Assembly (NCBI GenBank): GCA_019244395.1
Contig: JAFASQ010000415.1
Span: 1-42,232, forward strand
Length of the DNA: 42,232 bases
Source of the DNA: Solirubrobacterales bacterium
Lineage (GTDB): Bacteria > Actinomycetota > Thermoleophilia > Solirubrobacterales > Solirubrobacteraceae
Direction of reading: 5' to 3'
The notes under the pieces were generated by a model. The model was not told the origin of the DNA and did not search any database. It worked only from the letters and a program-made list of their open reading frames with translations. Position numbers and translations under genes: made by a program. Position 1 is the first letter of the stretch. Each line of letters starts with the position of its first letter. Positions 27,220 to 34,274 of this stretch are shown piece by piece.

Positions 27220-28290
27220 GTGGGGGTCCTTGCTCTCATCGGCACGCGCAAGGGTCTCTTCGTGCTCAGAGCGGCCGACGGGCGCGACAGGTGGCAGATA
27301 GAGGGGCCCTTGCTCGATACCTGGGGCGTTTACCACGCGGTCGTCGACGAGCGCGACGGGACCTGGTACGCGGCGGCCAACCACACCACTTATGGCCCAA
27401 CCGTTCAGCGCTCATCGGACGGCGGCCAGACGTGGAGGCGCTCGCGGCAGATCGGCCTCCCCGAGGAGTCTGGACTGGTCCTGAACGCGACCTGGCACAT
27501 CGAGCCGGGGCTCCCGGAGGACCCCGAGACGCTGTATCTAGGTGGTGATCCCGGCGTGTTGTTCCGCTCGCACGACCGCGGCGAGAGCTGGCAAGTGAAT
27601 CGGGCCATCCTCGATCACCCCACGCGGGCCGACGTTTGGATCCCGGGCGCAGGAGGGTTGTGCTGTCATTCGATTCAGATCGACCCACGCGATCCTGGGC
27701 GTATTTACGTCGGGATCACCTCAGCTGGGACCTTTCGTTCGGATGACGCTGGCGAGACTTGGGTTCCGCGGAACAAGAACATCGTGGCGGACTTCCGCCC
27801 GGATCCCTATGCGGAGGTCGGGCAGTGTCCTCACAAGCTGCTGCTCCACTGCACGCAGCCTGACCGACTGTGGCAGCAGAATCACTGCGGTGTCTACCGC
27901 TCGGATGACCGCGCCGACTCGTGGCTCCGGCTCGACGGGAACGGGCTGCCGAGCCCGTTTGGTTGGGCGCTCATGCTCGATCCGGATGATCCAGACACGG
28001 CGTTCGTGATCCCGGCCAGAAGCATGGAGTACCACTACGGTCCCGGTGGACGGCTCGCCGTCTATCGGACGACCGACGCGGGGGCGACGTGGGAGTCCGT
28101 TTCAAACGGCCTCCCGGATCAGTCGTGGACGGTAGTTCTCCGGGAAGCCTCGGCGTTCGACGATGAGTCCGTCTACTTCGGGACACAGAGCGGCTCGTTC
28201 TTCGTCCTTGCGGACGGCGATACCTGGCTCGAGGCAGCCCGGCATCTCCCAACGATCTTGTCCGTGGAGGTCACGTCGTGGTCCGCATAG
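27220..28290 (+). CDS. BNR/sialidase-like (VPS10/YCF48-type) beta-propeller protein
   Basis: LIGTRKGLFVLRAADGRDRW; Asp-box-like SSDGGQTW, SHDRGESW, SDDAGETW, TTDAGATW. Confidence 0.85.
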   Translation: MGVLALIGTRKGLFVLRAADGRDRWQIEGPLLDTWGVYHAVVDERDGTWYAAANHTTYGPTVQRSSDGGQTWRRSRQIGLPEESGLVLNATWHIEPGLPEDPETLYLGGDPGVLFRSHDRGESWQVNRAILDHPTRADVWIPGAGGLCCHSIQIDPRDPGRIYVGITSAGTFRSDDAGETWVPRNKNIVADFRPDPYAEVGQCPHKLLLHCTQPDRLWQQNHCGVYRSDDRADSWLRLDGNGLPSPFGWALMLDPDDPDTAFVIPARSMEYHYGPGGRLAVYRTTDAGATWESVSNGLPDQSWTVVLREASAFDDESVYFGTQSGSFFVLADGDTWLEAARHLPTILSVEVTSWSA

Positions 28291-28535
28291 TAGTCCCGAG
28301 CGTGCTCGCCTCCGAGGCGGAGGGGAAACAGAGCTTCGACGTTGAAGCGGAAACCCTTGGCGACGCGCTGCGCGCGCTCCCGGTCGCAGATCTCCTCTTC
28401 AACGAGCGCGGCGAGTTACGACACCACGTCAACGTATACGTGGATGGAGAGGACCATCGCGAACGAGGGGGCCTGGTGTCGCCACTCGAGGACGCTCACG
28501 AGGTCCGCATCGTCGCTATGGTCTCCGGCGGCTGA
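28278..28535 (+). CDS. MoaD/ThiS-like ubiquitin-fold protein with C-terminal GG
   Basis: MVRIVVPSVLASEAEGKQSFDVEAETLGDALRALPVADLLFNERGELRHHVNVYVDGEDHRERGGLVSPLEDAHEVRIVAMVSGG*; 13-nt overlap with upstream gene. Confidence 0.85.
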   Translation: MVRIVVPSVLASEAEGKQSFDVEAETLGDALRALPVADLLFNERGELRHHVNVYVDGEDHRERGGLVSPLEDAHEVRIVAMVSGG

Positions 28536-28576: not shown

Positions 28577-31330
28577 ATGGCTCTTTCCGCGGGACCGGAG
28601 AAGAGTGCGGCACTGCCTGGCCGCGGCGACGAGTGTGCGCGACTCGATCAGCTGCTTGCTGAGGCGCGTCTGGGGCAAAGCGCGGTCCTCGTGGTGCGGG
28701 GCGATCCGGGCATCGGCAAGTCCGCACTCCTCGATTACACGGCCGCCCACGCAGACGGCTGCCGGATTGCTCGCGCCGCGGGCGTGGAGTGGGAGATGGA
28801 GCTCCCCTTCGCAGGTCTGCATCAGCTGTGCGTGGGGCTGCTGGACGGCCTCGAGCAACTGCCGTTGCCGCAGCAGGACGCGCTCGCAGGAGCCTTCGGT
28901 CTCAGTCCCGGTTCGGAACCCGATCGGTTCCTCGTCGGACTGGCCGTGCTCAGCTTGTTGTCTCACACGGCGGAGGACCGACCGCTCGTTTGCCTCGTCG
29001 ATGACGTGCAGTGGCTTGATCGGTCCTCAGCGCAGGTCCTCGCGTTCGTCGCCCGGCGCCTGAAGGCGGAGTCCGTCCTGCTCGTCTTCGCAGTGCGCGA
29101 TGCTGGAGAGCTTGAGGAGCTCACTGGACTGCCCGAGCTGAGGCTCGGGGCGTTGCCGGTCGCGGCTGCCCGAGAGCTGCTTGCGTCCGTCCTGACGGCA
29201 CCTCTGGACGAGCGTGTCCGCGATCGGATCCTCGCCGAGACGCGTGGCAATCCGCTTGCGCTGCTTGAGCTGCCACAGGCATGGTCGCCTGAGACGCTGG
29301 CTGGCGGGTTCGGACTTCCTGGCAATCGATCGCTCTCAGGACGGATTGAGGCGAGCTTCGGACGGCGCGTACAGCTGCTCCCCGTAGAAACTCAGCGGCT
29401 GTTGCTGGTGGCCGCTGCCGACCCAACTGGCGAACCCGCGCTGCTGATGCGTGCCGCGAACTCGTTAGATATCCCGATGGAGGAACTGGCTCCCGCGGAG
29501 GCGGCTGGGCTGCTTGAACTCGGCGTCCAGGTTGCGTTTCGCCACTCGCTGCTTCGCTCGGCGATCTACCGTGGCGCCACGACGGAGATGCGTCGAGTGG
29601 CGCACCGAGCGCTGGCCGCCGCCACCGACCCCGAGCTCGACCCTGATCGCCACGCCTGGCATCGAGCTCACGCGACCGCCGGCGCCGACGAGGAGGTTGC
29701 AGCCGAGCTGGAGCGATCAGCCGACCGTGCTCGCGCGCGAGGTGGTCTGGCAGCAGCCGCCGCTTTCCTGGAACGGGCCGCAGCACTGACCGCTGACCCG
29801 GGTCGCCGGGCACGGCGGACGCTCGAGGCTGCCGCGAGCAAACAACTGGCCGGCGCGTCTCAGGCGGCTTTGACGCTACTCGCTGCGGCGGCCGCTGGCC
29901 CGCTGAATGACGTCGATAATGCCAGGCTGCAGCGCCTTCGCGGACAGATTCTCCTAGACCTGAGGCGCGCCGCCGAGGCGGAGCCGCTGCTGCTGGAGGC
30001 GGCCAGGCTCCTCGAACCGATTGACCCAGGCCTGGCGCGGGATACGCATTTGGAGGCGCATCGAGCCGGAAGTGTCGCGGGCCGCCTCGGCCGCGGCATG
30101 CTCGAGGCCGCCAGAGCGGCACGTAGCGCACCACCGAGGCCCGGACCCCCCCAGCCCAACGACCTGCTGCTCGACGGGCTGGCCATTCGTTTCACCGACG
30201 GTTATGCCGCCAGCGCGCAGGCCCTAAAAGTGGCCGTTCGCGCCGTCCGCGAAGCTGGCGATAACCCGGGGCAAAGCGTCCGGTGGCCGTGGTTGGGGCG
30301 GCGAGTGGCGCCGGACCTGTTCGACGATGAGGCGTGGAATTTCTTCGCGACTCTTGGCGTCAAACTCGCCCGCGAGCACGGGGCACTCGCGGTGCTTCCA
30401 CTCGCACTGAACTATCTCGCGCGCGATCTGTGCTTCGAGGGCGATTTGGACGGCGCGGCCAAGCTGGTGGATGAGGCCGACACCATCGCTGCCGCTACGG
30501 GTACCGAGCCGCTCGTGTTGGGCAGTCTGTCGCTGGCCGGCGTTCGTGGTAATGAGACGGAAGCCCTGAGCCTGTTCGAAGCCGCCGAGGAGGCTGCGAT
30601 CTCGCGCGGTGAGGGCGTTGTCGTGACCTTCTCCGAGCACTCGCGCGCGGTGCTATACAACGGACTCAGCCGCTACGAAGCCGCCCTCGGTCCAGCGCAG
30701 ACCGCAAGCGGCTTGGATGAGCTCATGGTCTCGGCTCAGGCCTTGCCGGAGCTTGTAGAGGCCGCGACCCGCTGCGGCAGCCTCCAGGTGGCGAACGACG
30801 CCATTGAGCGCCTCGTTGAAAGAACGTCGGCGGTGGGCACCGAGTGGGCGCGCGGCATCGAGGCGCGGTCACGAGCGCTGTTAAGCGAGGGCTCGGTCGC
30901 CGATCGGCTGTACTGCGGGGCGATCGATCACCTAAAGCGCTGCCGTCTGGCCCTCGAACTCGCGCGGGCCCACCTTCTATACGGCGAATGGCTGCGGCGC
31001 AATAGGCGTCGCACCGATGCCCGGGACGAACTGCGCCGCGCGCAGGACATGTTTACCTCAATGGGAGCTGAGGCGTTCGCGGGCCGCGCGGCTCGGGAAC
31101 TATTGGCGACTGGCGAGGCAGCCCGAAAGCGCTCAGTCGAGACCCGGGATGAGCTCACCGCACAGGAGTCGCAGATCGCCCAGTTTGCCCGGGATGGCCT
31201 GTCCAATGCCGAGATCGGTGCCCGACTCTTCATCAGTCCTCGGACGGTTGAGTACCACCTTCGGAAGGTGTTCGCCAAGTTGGGCATCACCAGTCGAGAG
31301 CACCTGGATCGCGTGCTGCCGCCCGAGTGA
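28577..31330 (+). CDS. LuxR-family regulator with N-terminal AAA/STAND ATPase (LAL type)
   Basis: Walker A VVRGDPGIGKSALLDY; Walker B LVCLVDDVQWLD; C-terminal HTH ELTAQESQIAQFARDGLSNAEIGARLFISPRTVEYHLRKVFAKLGI. Confidence 0.92.
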   Translation: MALSAGPEKSAALPGRGDECARLDQLLAEARLGQSAVLVVRGDPGIGKSALLDYTAAHADGCRIARAAGVEWEMELPFAGLHQLCVGLLDGLEQLPLPQQDALAGAFGLSPGSEPDRFLVGLAVLSLLSHTAEDRPLVCLVDDVQWLDRSSAQVLAFVARRLKAESVLLVFAVRDAGELEELTGLPELRLGALPVAAARELLASVLTAPLDERVRDRILAETRGNPLALLELPQAWSPETLAGGFGLPGNRSLSGRIEASFGRRVQLLPVETQRLLLVAAADPTGEPALLMRAANSLDIPMEELAPAEAAGLLELGVQVAFRHSLLRSAIYRGATTEMRRVAHRALAAATDPELDPDRHAWHRAHATAGADEEVAAELERSADRARARGGLAAAAAFLERAAALTADPGRRARRTLEAAASKQLAGASQAALTLLAAAAAGPLNDVDNARLQRLRGQILLDLRRAAEAEPLLLEAARLLEPIDPGLARDTHLEAHRAGSVAGRLGRGMLEAARAARSAPPRPGPPQPNDLLLDGLAIRFTDGYAASAQALKVAVRAVREAGDNPGQSVRWPWLGRRVAPDLFDDEAWNFFATLGVKLAREHGALAVLPLALNYLARDLCFEGDLDGAAKLVDEADTIAAATGTEPLVLGSLSLAGVRGNETEALSLFEAAEEAAISRGEGVVVTFSEHSRAVLYNGLSRYEAALGPAQTASGLDELMVSAQALPELVEAATRCGSLQVANDAIERLVERTSAVGTEWARGIEARSRALLSEGSVADRLYCGAIDHLKRCRLALELARAHLLYGEWLRRNRRRTDARDELRRAQDMFTSMGAEAFAGRAARELLATGEAARKRSVETRDELTAQESQIAQFARDGLSNAEIGARLFISPRTVEYHLRKVFAKLGITSREHLDRVLPPE

Positions 31331-31493: not shown

Positions 31494-34274
31494 ATGATCG
31501 GTCCACGTTCTGCCGGCGAAGCGTCACACCCGGCGCGCAATTCGTGGTCGCTATGCGGACGAAGCGCCGAGCGGCGACTTCTCGACCATCTGCTTGAGGC
31601 GGTGCGCACGGGCGAGAGCCGGACGCTGGTGATCGTCGGCGAGCCAGGGATCGGGAAGACGGCTTTGCTTGAGCACACGGTCGCCATTTCGCCGGATTTT
31701 CGGATCGTGCAGACCGTCGGGGTGGAGTCGGAGATGGAGCTGGCGTATGCGAGTCTGCATCAGTTGTGCGCGCCCCTGCTTGACCGGGTCGAGAGGTTGC
31801 CGGCTCCGCAGCATCACGCGCTCGAGATCGTATTCGGCTTGAGCGCCGGCGCTGCCCCGGATCGGTTCCTGGTCGGGTTAGCGGTGTTGAGCTTGCTCTC
31901 TGGGGCGGCTGACGAGTGTCCCCTCATTTGTCTGGTGGATGACGCGCAGTGGCTCGATGCCGCATCGTCGCAGACGCTCGGTTTCGTAGCCCGCCGGCTG
32001 GGTGCCGAGTCCGTCGGGGTCTTCTTCGGCACGCGCGAGGTCGGACCGGACCTGATCGGGTTGCCGGATCTCCACGTGGCTGGCCTGTCCAACCGCGATG
32101 CGCGTGCCTTGCTCGACTCGGCCATGCGCGGTCGGTTGGATGAGCGGATCAAGGACCGGATCGTCGCGGAAACCGACGGGAACCCGCTTGCCCTGCTCGA
32201 GCTTCACCGAAGCCTCACTCCTGCGCAACTCGCGGGCGGCTTTGGTGAGCCTTATGCAGGCGCCCTGGCGAGCCGGGTCGAAGAGAGCTTCGGTCGCCGC
32301 CTGGCGGCGCTCCCCGCGGAGACGCGATGGCTATTACTCGTCGCAGCCGCCGAGCCACTGGGCGAGCCACTTCTCCTGTGGCGCGCCGCCGAGCGCCTCG
32401 GGCTGCCACCCAGCGCGGCGGACGCCGCAGAGCACTCCGGCCTTCTCCAAATCGGCTCAGGCGTCCGGTTCCGTCATCCGCTCGTCCGATCGGCGGTCTA
32501 TCGATCAGCCACGCCCGCGGAGAGGCGCAGAGCGCACAACGCCCTGGCACACGCCACGGATGCGGAGTCCGACCCCGAGCGCCGCGCCTGGCATCGCGCT
32601 CGCGGCGCGGCCGCGTCCGACGAAAGCATCGCCACGGAACTCGAACGGTCGGCGGGAAGCGCGGCCGCGCGCGGAGGACGGGCGGCCGCTGCGGCATTCC
32701 TCAGACAGGCGGCGGCCCTCTCCCCGGAGCCTGCCGATCGAGCGCGCAGGGCACTGACGGCAGCGGAAGCAGAATGGCAGGCGGGCGACCCCGAGGCCGC
32801 AATTCAAATCCTTGTCTTCGCAGAGGCCGGGCCGCTAGAACCGCTGGCACAAGCGCGCGCCGACCTTCTGCGTGGCCGTGTGGCGTTCAGCGTTGGTGCC
32901 GACGAGGCGGCCCGTCTACTGTTCGACGCCGCGAAGCGGCTCGAACCGCTGGACATGGATCGAGCCCGTGAGACTTACCTCGATGCGCTCAGCGCCATGG
33001 TTTACATGGGCCCGAATGCGCGGTGTGACCCCATCGAGGTGGCCCGGGCCGCGCTCGCCGCCCGGCGCCCCGGCCATCCGCGGCCGACCGACCTGCTCCT
33101 CGACGGGATCGCGCTTCAGATCACCGAGGGTTATGCGACCGCAACTGCGACACTGCGCGAGGCCGTCAGAGCATTCGATAGCGACGACGTTCCCGCGGAC
33201 GTCGGGCTCGGCTGGGGCTGGCTGGCGTCGCACGTGGCGAGCTCTCTATGGGAGCACGAGCTTCAACTCACGCTTGCCCGCCGACACGTGCGGCTGGTGC
33301 GTGAGGCCGGAGCGCTGGAGGTGCTGGTCCCGACCCTGGCGCAGCTAGTCGGCATCTACCTACGCGACGGGAAACTGGGTGAGGCAGCGGCGCTCACGCG
33401 TGAGATGACGGCGGCCGGCGACGCGACGCGCAGCGGGCCTGCGGTCCATATTGCCATGGTGACGGCGGCATATGCGGGCCTGGAAGCCGAAGGGGAGCGG
33501 CTGATCGTCGAGGTCAGCCGGCACCTGACGCCCCAGTCGCGCGGCCTTGGTGTGGTCGTCGTTCAGTTCGCGAGCCTGCTCCTCTACAACGGTTTGGGCC
33601 GCTACGAGGATGCGCTGCGCCACGGAAGCGCAGCCCTTGAAGATCCCGAACCGGTCGGACGGCCCCCGTGGGCCTTCCCGGAGCTCGTGGAGGCCGCCGC
33701 GCGTGCAGGTGCGCCGGACCTCGCGGCTCGTGCCCTGCAAGCCCTCTCCGAACGGGCTGCCATCAGCGGCACCGACTGGGCTCGGGGCCTTGAGGCCCGC
33801 TCGCGCGCGCTGTTGAGCGAGGGCGTAACGGCCGAACGTCTGTATCGCGAGGCAATCGAGCGGCTCGCGAGACCTGGGAGCCGGACGGACCTTGCGCGCG
33901 CTCACCTCGTCTACGGCGAGTGGCTGCGCCGCGAGGGTCGCCGGGTCGACGCGCGGGAACAGCTGCGCATGGCCCACGACCACTTCAGGTCGATCGGGAT
34001 GGAGGCGTTCGCCGAGCGCGCTCGTCGGGAGCGGCTGGCGACGGGCGAGAAGGCGCGCAAGCGGACGGTCGAGGCGCGCGACGATCTGACGGCTCAGGAG
34101 CGGCAGATCGCCGAGTTCGCCCGCGACGGGCTGTCGAACCCCGAGATCGGTGCCCGGCTGTTCCTCAGCCCGCGCACCGTTGAGTGGCACCTGCGGAAGG
34201 TGTTCGGGAAGCTCGGGATCCGTTCTCGCCACGAACTGGCCGGGGCGTTTGCCGCCTCCGCGTCTCCGAGGTGA
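31494..34274 (+). CDS. LuxR-family regulator with N-terminal AAA/STAND ATPase (LAL type), paralogue of the upstream gene
   Basis: Walker A VIVGEPGIGKTALLEH; Walker B LICLVDDAQWLD; C-terminal HTH DLTAQERQIAEFARDGLSNPEIGARLFLSPRTVEWHLRKVFGKLGI; SD ggaggagg. Confidence 0.92.
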   Translation: MIGPRSAGEASHPARNSWSLCGRSAERRLLDHLLEAVRTGESRTLVIVGEPGIGKTALLEHTVAISPDFRIVQTVGVESEMELAYASLHQLCAPLLDRVERLPAPQHHALEIVFGLSAGAAPDRFLVGLAVLSLLSGAADECPLICLVDDAQWLDAASSQTLGFVARRLGAESVGVFFGTREVGPDLIGLPDLHVAGLSNRDARALLDSAMRGRLDERIKDRIVAETDGNPLALLELHRSLTPAQLAGGFGEPYAGALASRVEESFGRRLAALPAETRWLLLVAAAEPLGEPLLLWRAAERLGLPPSAADAAEHSGLLQIGSGVRFRHPLVRSAVYRSATPAERRRAHNALAHATDAESDPERRAWHRARGAAASDESIATELERSAGSAAARGGRAAAAAFLRQAAALSPEPADRARRALTAAEAEWQAGDPEAAIQILVFAEAGPLEPLAQARADLLRGRVAFSVGADEAARLLFDAAKRLEPLDMDRARETYLDALSAMVYMGPNARCDPIEVARAALAARRPGHPRPTDLLLDGIALQITEGYATATATLREAVRAFDSDDVPADVGLGWGWLASHVASSLWEHELQLTLARRHVRLVREAGALEVLVPTLAQLVGIYLRDGKLGEAAALTREMTAAGDATRSGPAVHIAMVTAAYAGLEAEGERLIVEVSRHLTPQSRGLGVVVVQFASLLLYNGLGRYEDALRHGSAALEDPEPVGRPPWAFPELVEAAARAGAPDLAARALQALSERAAISGTDWARGLEARSRALLSEGVTAERLYREAIERLARPGSRTDLARAHLVYGEWLRREGRRVDAREQLRMAHDHFRSIGMEAFAERARRERLATGEKARKRTVEARDDLTAQERQIAEFARDGLSNPEIGARLFLSPRTVEWHLRKVFGKLGIRSRHELAGAFAASASPR

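What the first reader, a model, noticed from the sequence alone, without database searches (positions are those of the whole stretch)
27220..28535. BNR beta-propeller overlapping a MoaD/ThiS-type ubiquitin-like protein
The two genes overlap by 13 nt (28278-28290), so they are probably co-translated. The small protein keeps the GG C-terminus needed for adenylation/thiocarboxylation or conjugation, yet no MoaE, ThiG, E1-like or other cofactor gene is nearby. The propeller has Asp-box-like repeats but no signal peptide, so it is probably cytosolic. This could be a sulfur-carrier or protein-tagging pair in which the propeller is substrate, scaffold or processing factor.
Basis: partly seen in the sequence, partly recalled or inferred. 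Interest (0 to 1): 0.6.

Follow-up and report, generated by a model that had tools for sequence, protein, structure and literature searches.

The report
Conserved ubiquitin-like protein and propeller pair
Two overlapping genes encode a small ubiquitin-like protein with an intact Gly-Gly tail and a cytosolic seven-bladed propeller; the same pair is kept side by side in bacteria of many phyla, nearly always in bacteria that use molybdenum cofactor, and I found no published description of it.

Summary
The pair is not local. In an E-value-based class survey, 29 of 29 propeller loci examined have an adjacent Ubl. In a cross-phylum scan it is 71 of 80, against one Ubl elsewhere in about 0.96 Mb of flank. 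Gene order has flipped several times while the pairing persisted. Gly-Gly is the only invariant feature of the Ubl. The propeller keeps K11, W140, H205, Q220, H222 and R308, which map by topology to one face. It is not a sialidase (no FRIP motif in 113 homologues). The closest solved structure, 3b7f, is of unknown function.

In Bacteroidota the genes sit in Moco clusters with XdhC and xanthine-oxidase-family enzymes. In the window's class, 53/53 propeller genomes carry MoaE or a xanthine-oxidase-family enzyme, against 91/146 of the others. Catalase shows no such enrichment, but phylogeny confounds part of this.

Best reading (confidence 0.42): a sulfur-carrier Ubl charged by the genome's single E1-rhodanese hands sulfur to its propeller partner, probably for molybdoenzyme maturation. 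Linkage is shown; chemistry is inferred.

The parts
27220..28290 (+). Cytosolic seven-bladed Asp-box beta-propeller gene, 3b7f family (356 aa, GTG start)
28278..28535 (+). Ubiquitin-like sulfur-carrier-type protein gene, ThiS/MoaD/CysO fold, ends in Gly-Gly (85 aa, GTG start)
28278..28290 (+). 13-nt overlap of the two reading frames; close relatives have gaps of about -4 to +13 nt (translational coupling inferred)
28527..28532 (+). Codons of terminal Gly84-Gly85, the only two invariant columns among 37 paired Ubls
   Evidence: 68 of 72 Ubl ORFs end exactly at GG
27250..27252 (+). Codon of Lys11 of the propeller, invariant in 106 homologues, B-C hairpin of the closing blade
27637..27639 (+). 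Codon of Trp140 of the propeller, invariant in 106 homologues
27832..27834 (+). Codon of His205, invariant, start of an innermost strand
27871..27891 (+). WQQNHCG motif (residues 218-224); Gln220 and His222 invariant in 106 homologues
28141..28143 (+). Codon of Arg308, invariant in 106 homologues
28577..31330 (+). AAA_16 + LuxR-type (LAL) regulator immediately downstream; a similar gene follows the pair in the two closest relatives (L069, L070); not part of the conserved unit elsewhere

Best explanation
The two genes form a dedicated sulfur-carrier module. The Ubl is adenylated at its Gly-Gly end and turned into a thiocarboxylate by the genome's single E1-like enzyme with a rhodanese domain, which probably serves several Ubls as mycobacterial MoeZ does. 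The charged Ubl docks on its partner propeller. The propeller holds a conserved His/Gln/Arg/Lys/Trp site on one face and uses the sulfur, or passes it on, in a cytosolic reaction tied to molybdoenzymes, most likely maturation or sulfuration of the molybdenum cofactor of xanthine-oxidase-family enzymes. Shown: near-obligate pairing, invariant GG, fold of both proteins (predicted), invariant residues, E1 in the genome, association with Moco genes. Inferred from topology: that the invariant residues share one face. Inferred: thiocarboxylate formation, direct contact, the transfer step and the Moco acceptor.
For: Pairing: 29/29 loci in the class, 71/80 across phyla, kept through changes of gene order. 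Ubl: GG is the only invariant feature; the fold is closest to the sulfur carrier CysO. E1: one strong ThiF hit in the genome, rhodanese-fused; in genome G216 an E1-rhodanese gene lies directly before Ubl+propeller at two loci. Propeller: invariant K11, W140, H205, Q220, H222, R308, in innermost-strand starts, the loops before them and B-C hairpins of the model. Moco: Bacteroidota loci contain XdhC, MoaA/C/E, MoeA, MobA-like NTP transferase, ModA-like protein, CoxG or xanthine-oxidase-family subunits next to the pair or its solo paralogue. MoaE is in 50/53 propeller+ against 61/146 propeller- genomes; MoaE or xanthine-oxidase family in 53/53 against 91/146; catalase control 7/53 against 42/146. 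Across phyla 47/49 propeller genomes have MoaE.
Against: Physical linkage to Moco genes was seen only in Bacteroidota; the flanks (up to 8 kb) of the Actinomycetota, Chloroflexota, Planctomycetota, Myxococcota and Proteobacteria loci held none. The co-occurrence is partly phylogenetic: it discriminates within family f7 (31/31 against 8/11, p=0.014) but not within the window's own family f1. Many bacteria with Moco lack the pair, so it is not essential to Moco. XdhC with a cysteine desulfurase already explains Mo=S formation in Rhodobacter capsulatus (PMC2997495). A few propellers keep the invariant residues without an adjacent Ubl.
Confidence: 0.42

Rival explanations
1. Sulfur-carrier module with a non-molybdenum product. 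The Ubl delivers sulfur to the propeller for another small molecule or RNA, and the Moco association reflects lifestyle and chance operon neighbours in Bacteroidota.
For: No Moco genes in the flanks outside Bacteroidota; the pair sits beside cysK-JAB-CysO-E1 in G216 and a Ubl-less propeller lies near egtB/egtD in a Rhodobacter plasmid. Ubl sulfur carriers serve many products (PMC1779556).
Against: All 53 propeller genomes in the class sample carry MoaE or a xanthine-oxidase-family enzyme, and five paired plus four solo Bacteroidota loci lie in Moco clusters.
Confidence: 0.25
2. The Ubl is a structural or regulatory subunit of the propeller. Its GG tail lies in the propeller's central pocket but carries no sulfur.
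For: One-to-one gene ratio and tight coupling suggest a stoichiometric complex; some lineages have a propeller with no nearby Ubl.
Against: GG is the only invariant feature among 37 Ubls down to 20% identity and sits at the very C-terminus in 68 of 72 ORFs, the hallmark of adenylation substrates; E1 genes adjoin the pair in G216.
Confidence: 0.18
3. Protein-tagging pair: the Ubl is conjugated to lysines, with the propeller as substrate, adaptor or ligase.
For: The Ubl resembles archaeal SAMP1 (NCBIfam SAMP1 35.5 bits, below its cut-off of 60; Foldseek 3po0 TM 0.70), and Urm1/SAMP-type proteins do both jobs.
Against: No E2 gene or dedicated JAB deconjugase accompanies the pair; no third gene is conserved across phyla. 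Invariant residues that fall on one propeller face suggest an active or binding site rather than a passive substrate.
Confidence: 0.1
4. Secreted sialidase or glycosidase, as public annotation names it (exo-alpha-sialidase), with a chance neighbour.
For: Asp boxes and fold similarity to GH74 propellers; RefSeq names.
Against: No signal peptide, no FRIP motif in 113 homologues, single propeller, and near-obligate Ubl neighbour.
Confidence: 0.03

Closest known systems
CysO-CysM sulfur carrier system of Mycobacterium tuberculosis (3dwg, 3dwm)
   Same: The Ubl is structurally nearest to CysO (TM 0.84), has the GG end, and the genome has an E1-rhodanese like the MoeZ that CysO shares with MoaD (PMC3227635).
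   Different: The partner is a beta-propeller, not a cysteine synthase; no JAB protease or cysM beside it in the window.
MoaD-MoaE molybdopterin synthase
   Same: Small GG-ended beta-grasp protein with a dedicated partner; genome-level link to Moco.
   Different: This genome has a separate fused MoaD-MoaE gene; the partner here is not MoaE.
Protein 3b7f (Reut_B4987, Cupriavidus/Ralstonia eutropha JMP134)
   Same: Same family: 38% identity, TM 0.94, same invariant residues. Listed with function 'Not known' in PMC2716378.
   Different: Its gene neighbour was not examined here; the deposit calls it a putative glycosyl hydrolase.
YCF48/HCF136 photosystem II assembly propeller
   Same: Asp-box-type propeller acting as an assembly factor.
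   Different: Only TM about 0.5; no Ubl partner known to me.
XdhC plus cysteine desulfurase Moco sulfuration
   Same: Adds sulfur to Moco for xanthine-oxidase-family enzymes; xdhC is a repeated Bacteroidota neighbour of the pair.
   Different: The review passages read describe no Ubl or propeller in the system (PMC2997495).

Membership tests
ThiS/MoaD/CysO-type sulfur carriers | Beta-grasp fold and Pfam ThiS above cut-off | tested here: met
   24.5 bits against 22.5; AF2 model nearest to CysO
ThiS/MoaD/CysO-type sulfur carriers | Free C-terminal Gly-Gly | tested here: met
   Ends SGG; only invariant columns among 37 homologues
ThiS/MoaD/CysO-type sulfur carriers | An E1-like activating enzyme in the genome | tested here: met
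   One strong ThiF hit, fused to rhodanese
ThiS/MoaD/CysO-type sulfur carriers | C-terminal thiocarboxylate formed | not testable with these tools
   Needs mass spectrometry
MoaD of molybdopterin synthase | Partner MoaE | tested here: not met
   Partner is a propeller; a MoaD-MoaE fusion exists on another contig
CysO of cysteine biosynthesis | Adjacent cysM and JAB protease | tested here: not met
   Neighbours are isochorismatase-family and LAL regulator genes
SAMP1 (NCBIfam NF041918) | Score above the curated cut-off | tested here: not met
   35.5 bits against 60
Sialidase GH33 | FRIP motif | tested here: not met
   Absent in all 113 homologues
Sialidase GH33 | Secretion signal in the extracellular members | tested here: not met
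   In-frame stop 4 codons upstream of the start; beta-strand from residue 2
GH74 xyloglucanase | Two tandem seven-bladed propellers | tested here: not met
   Single 356-aa propeller; TM normalised by GH74 targets only about 0.33
3b7f propeller family | Full-length similarity and shared invariant residues | tested here: met
   E 6.5e-66, TM 0.94, residues aligned
Bacterial ubiquitin-like conjugation operons | E2 and/or JAB with E1 in the same operon | tested here: not met
   No cross-phylum third gene in 80 loci; E1 and JAB beside the pair only in G216
Moco maturation factors | Required for molybdoenzyme activity | not testable with these tools
   Only gene context and co-occurrence available

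The most novel reading that the evidence does not exclude
A beta-propeller is the acceptor enzyme of a thiocarboxylated ubiquitin-like protein, and the pair is an undescribed route, spread over many phyla, that inserts the terminal sulfur into the molybdenum cofactor of xanthine-oxidase-family enzymes or otherwise matures them.
Probability: 0.2. Interest if true: 0.85.

Novelty: new variant of a known kind. Interest (0 to 1): 0.62.

Why it matters
Each known dedicated Ubl sulfur carrier (MoaD, ThiS, CysO, PdtH) marks a distinct sulfur-transfer pathway. A carrier that has stayed next to one propeller family across at least six bacterial phyla, through changes of gene order, is strong evidence of another such pathway hidden under the names 'exo-alpha-sialidase' and 'MoaD/ThiS family protein'. 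If the molybdenum link holds, it would add a player to molybdoenzyme maturation and give a function to a structure (3b7f) that has sat in the PDB without one since 2007. Even if the product is something else, the misleading sialidase label affects many genomes, and the pair is directly testable in culturable bacteria.

Tried and rejected
Sialidase or glycosidase reading: rejected (no FRIP, no signal peptide). A conserved third gene: clustering 830 neighbouring ORFs gave only the Ubl itself as a cross-phylum cluster of any size. Claim that the window's Ubl was recruited separately from the CysO lineage: the tree suggests two groups of paired Ubls, but the AU test does not reject one clade (p 0.37), so not claimed. 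Reading the Bacteroidota propellers without an adjacent Ubl as Ubl-independent systems: four of those six genomes have a full pair elsewhere, one has a propeller-type Ubl elsewhere and one has only a CysO-type Ubl; a locus I had first read as unpaired in G332 was a gene-calling artefact and is paired. Treating the whole WQQNHCG motif as invariant: the pattern-based scan selected for it, so only residues invariant when the E-value-based set is added are claimed. MoaE test in Bacteroidia: the propeller is too rare (5/295) to be informative. Literature: no paper found in the open-access library describes the pair; subscription papers and preprints could not be searched.

Full report
1. The observation. 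The reading frames are exactly as described: propeller 27220-28290 (+), Ubl 28278-28535 (+), overlap 28278-28290. The Ubl is a Pfam ThiS member just over the curated cut-off (24.5 against 22.5 bits), with CysO as nearest PDB sequence (3dwg, E 7.6e-7). An AlphaFold2 model from an alignment of 37 sequences has pLDDT 92.6 and is closest to CysO (TM 0.84), then SAMP1, Urm1 and MoaD. The propeller matches PDB 3b7f over its full length (E 6.5e-66). Its model (alignment of 43 sequences, pLDDT 95.3, pTM 0.93) shows seven four-stranded blades by my count of the strands and superposes on 3b7f at TM 0.94. An in-frame stop 4 codons before the start leaves no room for a signal peptide.

2. The pair is conserved. 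In a class-level sample of 199 genomes (taken as Thermoleophilia from the nearest named relatives, L069 and L070), 53 carry a propeller at E<=1e-40. In all 29 homologous loci I examined with flanks, a Ubl lies directly next to it. A scan of 84,980 species genomes gave 80 loci from Actinomycetota, Chloroflexota, Planctomycetota, Myxococcota, Bacteroidota and Proteobacteria. 71 have a Ubl abutting or within about 150 nt of the propeller; three of the nine others end at the contig edge and six are Bacteroidota. In the rest of the flanking sequence, about 0.96 Mb, there is one other Ubl, a CysO. The order is propeller-Ubl in the window's group, Caulobacterales and gammaproteobacteria, and Ubl-propeller in Chloroflexota, Bacteroidota, Planctomycetota and a second actinobacterial group. 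The label needs several changes on the propeller tree, so adjacency has been kept across rearrangement. The window's own genome has a second pair in the opposite order at C536. No third gene is conserved across phyla.

3. What is conserved inside the proteins. Among 37 paired Ubls down to 20% identity, the only invariant columns are the last two glycines; 68 of 72 Ubl ORFs end exactly there. One plasmid-borne Ubl (L156) ends without GG. In the propeller, K11, W140, H205, Q220, H222 and R308 are invariant in 106 homologues, apart from residues of the Asp boxes. On the model they lie at the starts of innermost strands, in loops leading into them, or in B-C hairpins. Ascertainment caution: the cross-phylum scan used peptide patterns including WQQNHCGV, so I rely on residues also invariant in the E-value-based class set.

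4. Not a sialidase. Public records name such proteins exo-alpha-sialidase or sialidase family protein. None of 113 homologues has the FRIP motif. The closest structure is listed as function not known in PMC2716378.

5. Molybdenum cofactor. In Bacteroidota the genes recur in Moco clusters. Paired loci: G231 (two pairs, each beside xdhC), G449 (MobA-like NTP transferase and xdhC), G271 (moaE, moaC, a PF00384 oxidoreductase, a xanthine-oxidase-family subunit), G332 (ModA-like binding protein, xanthine-oxidase-family subunits, coxG). Solo propellers: L117, L122, L130, L147. Four of the six genomes with a solo propeller also carry a full pair elsewhere. In G216 the pair follows an E1(rhodanese) gene at two loci, behind cysK-JAB-CysO.

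6. Genome co-occurrence in the window's class. MoaE 50/53 with propeller against 61/146 without (p 3e-12); xanthine-oxidase family 47/53 against 62/146 (p 2e-9); XdhC 45/53 against 57/146 (p 7e-9). Given MoaE, xanthine-oxidase family is still enriched (44/50 against 32/61, p 7e-5). MoaE or xanthine-oxidase family is 53/53 against 91/146, and catalase, as control, is 7/53 against 42/146. Across phyla 47 of 49 propeller genomes have MoaE. Limits: the genomes are related; within family f7 the signal holds (31/31 against 8/11, p 0.014), within the window's family f1 it cannot discriminate; genomes without any hit are not listed by family; many are incomplete MAGs; and outside Bacteroidota there is no physical linkage.

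7. Mechanism. The genome holds eight ThiS-family genes, including a fused MoaD-MoaE, and one strong ThiF hit, fused to rhodanese. A single MoeZ-type enzyme charging several Ubls has precedent: mycobacterial MoeZR makes thiocarboxylate on both MoaD and CysO (PMC3227635). I therefore propose E1-rhodanese, then Ubl thiocarboxylate, then propeller as acceptor, with molybdoenzyme maturation as the most likely destination. XdhC-linked sulfuration of Moco (PMC2997495) is the step most often beside it in Bacteroidota. The conserved pair and its genome association are shown; charging, docking and product are inferred.

8. Prior knowledge. The standard survey of prokaryotic Ubl gene neighbourhoods (PMC1779556) lists no propeller association in the rows of Table 1 that I read and does not contain the words propeller, BNR or sialidase. 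Searches combining MoaD with BNR or sialidase terms returned nothing, and a broader search gave no paper whose title or abstract describes such a pair. The pair is visible in RefSeq annotation only as two adjacent unrelated names.

9. Verdict. Both partners belong to known folds; the combination is new to me. I file it as a new variant of the dedicated sulfur-carrier pair.

Noticed in passing
window own genome, contig C536:4829-6129 (L007): A second Ubl+propeller pair in the same genome in the opposite gene order, its propeller about 41% identical to the window's.
   Followed up: partly
L109 / L182 / L186 (genome G216): cysK-JAB-CysO-E1(rhodanese) genes followed directly by Ubl and propeller, at two loci of one Bacteroidota genome.
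   Followed up: partly
L152, L153, L157: Plasmid-borne propellers in Rhodobacteraceae and a Streptomyces with no Ubl nearby; one lies beside ergothioneine genes egtB and egtD.
   Followed up: partly
L156:7102-7380: Ubl beside a Nonomuraea propeller that ends LPALA without the Gly-Gly.
   Followed up: no
28577-31330 and 31494-34274: Two tandem large AAA_16 plus LuxR-type regulators; a gene like the first also follows the pair in the two closest Solirubrobacterales relatives.
   Followed up: no
G000 contig C188:7559-8188 (L171): Fused MoaD-MoaE gene in the window's genome.
   Followed up: no
L018-L020, L023, L025, L031: A subgroup of paired Ubls with a divergent central region (such as RRDFIRFFACG); two of their propellers checked have FMQKHWD in place of WQQNHCG.
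   Followed up: no
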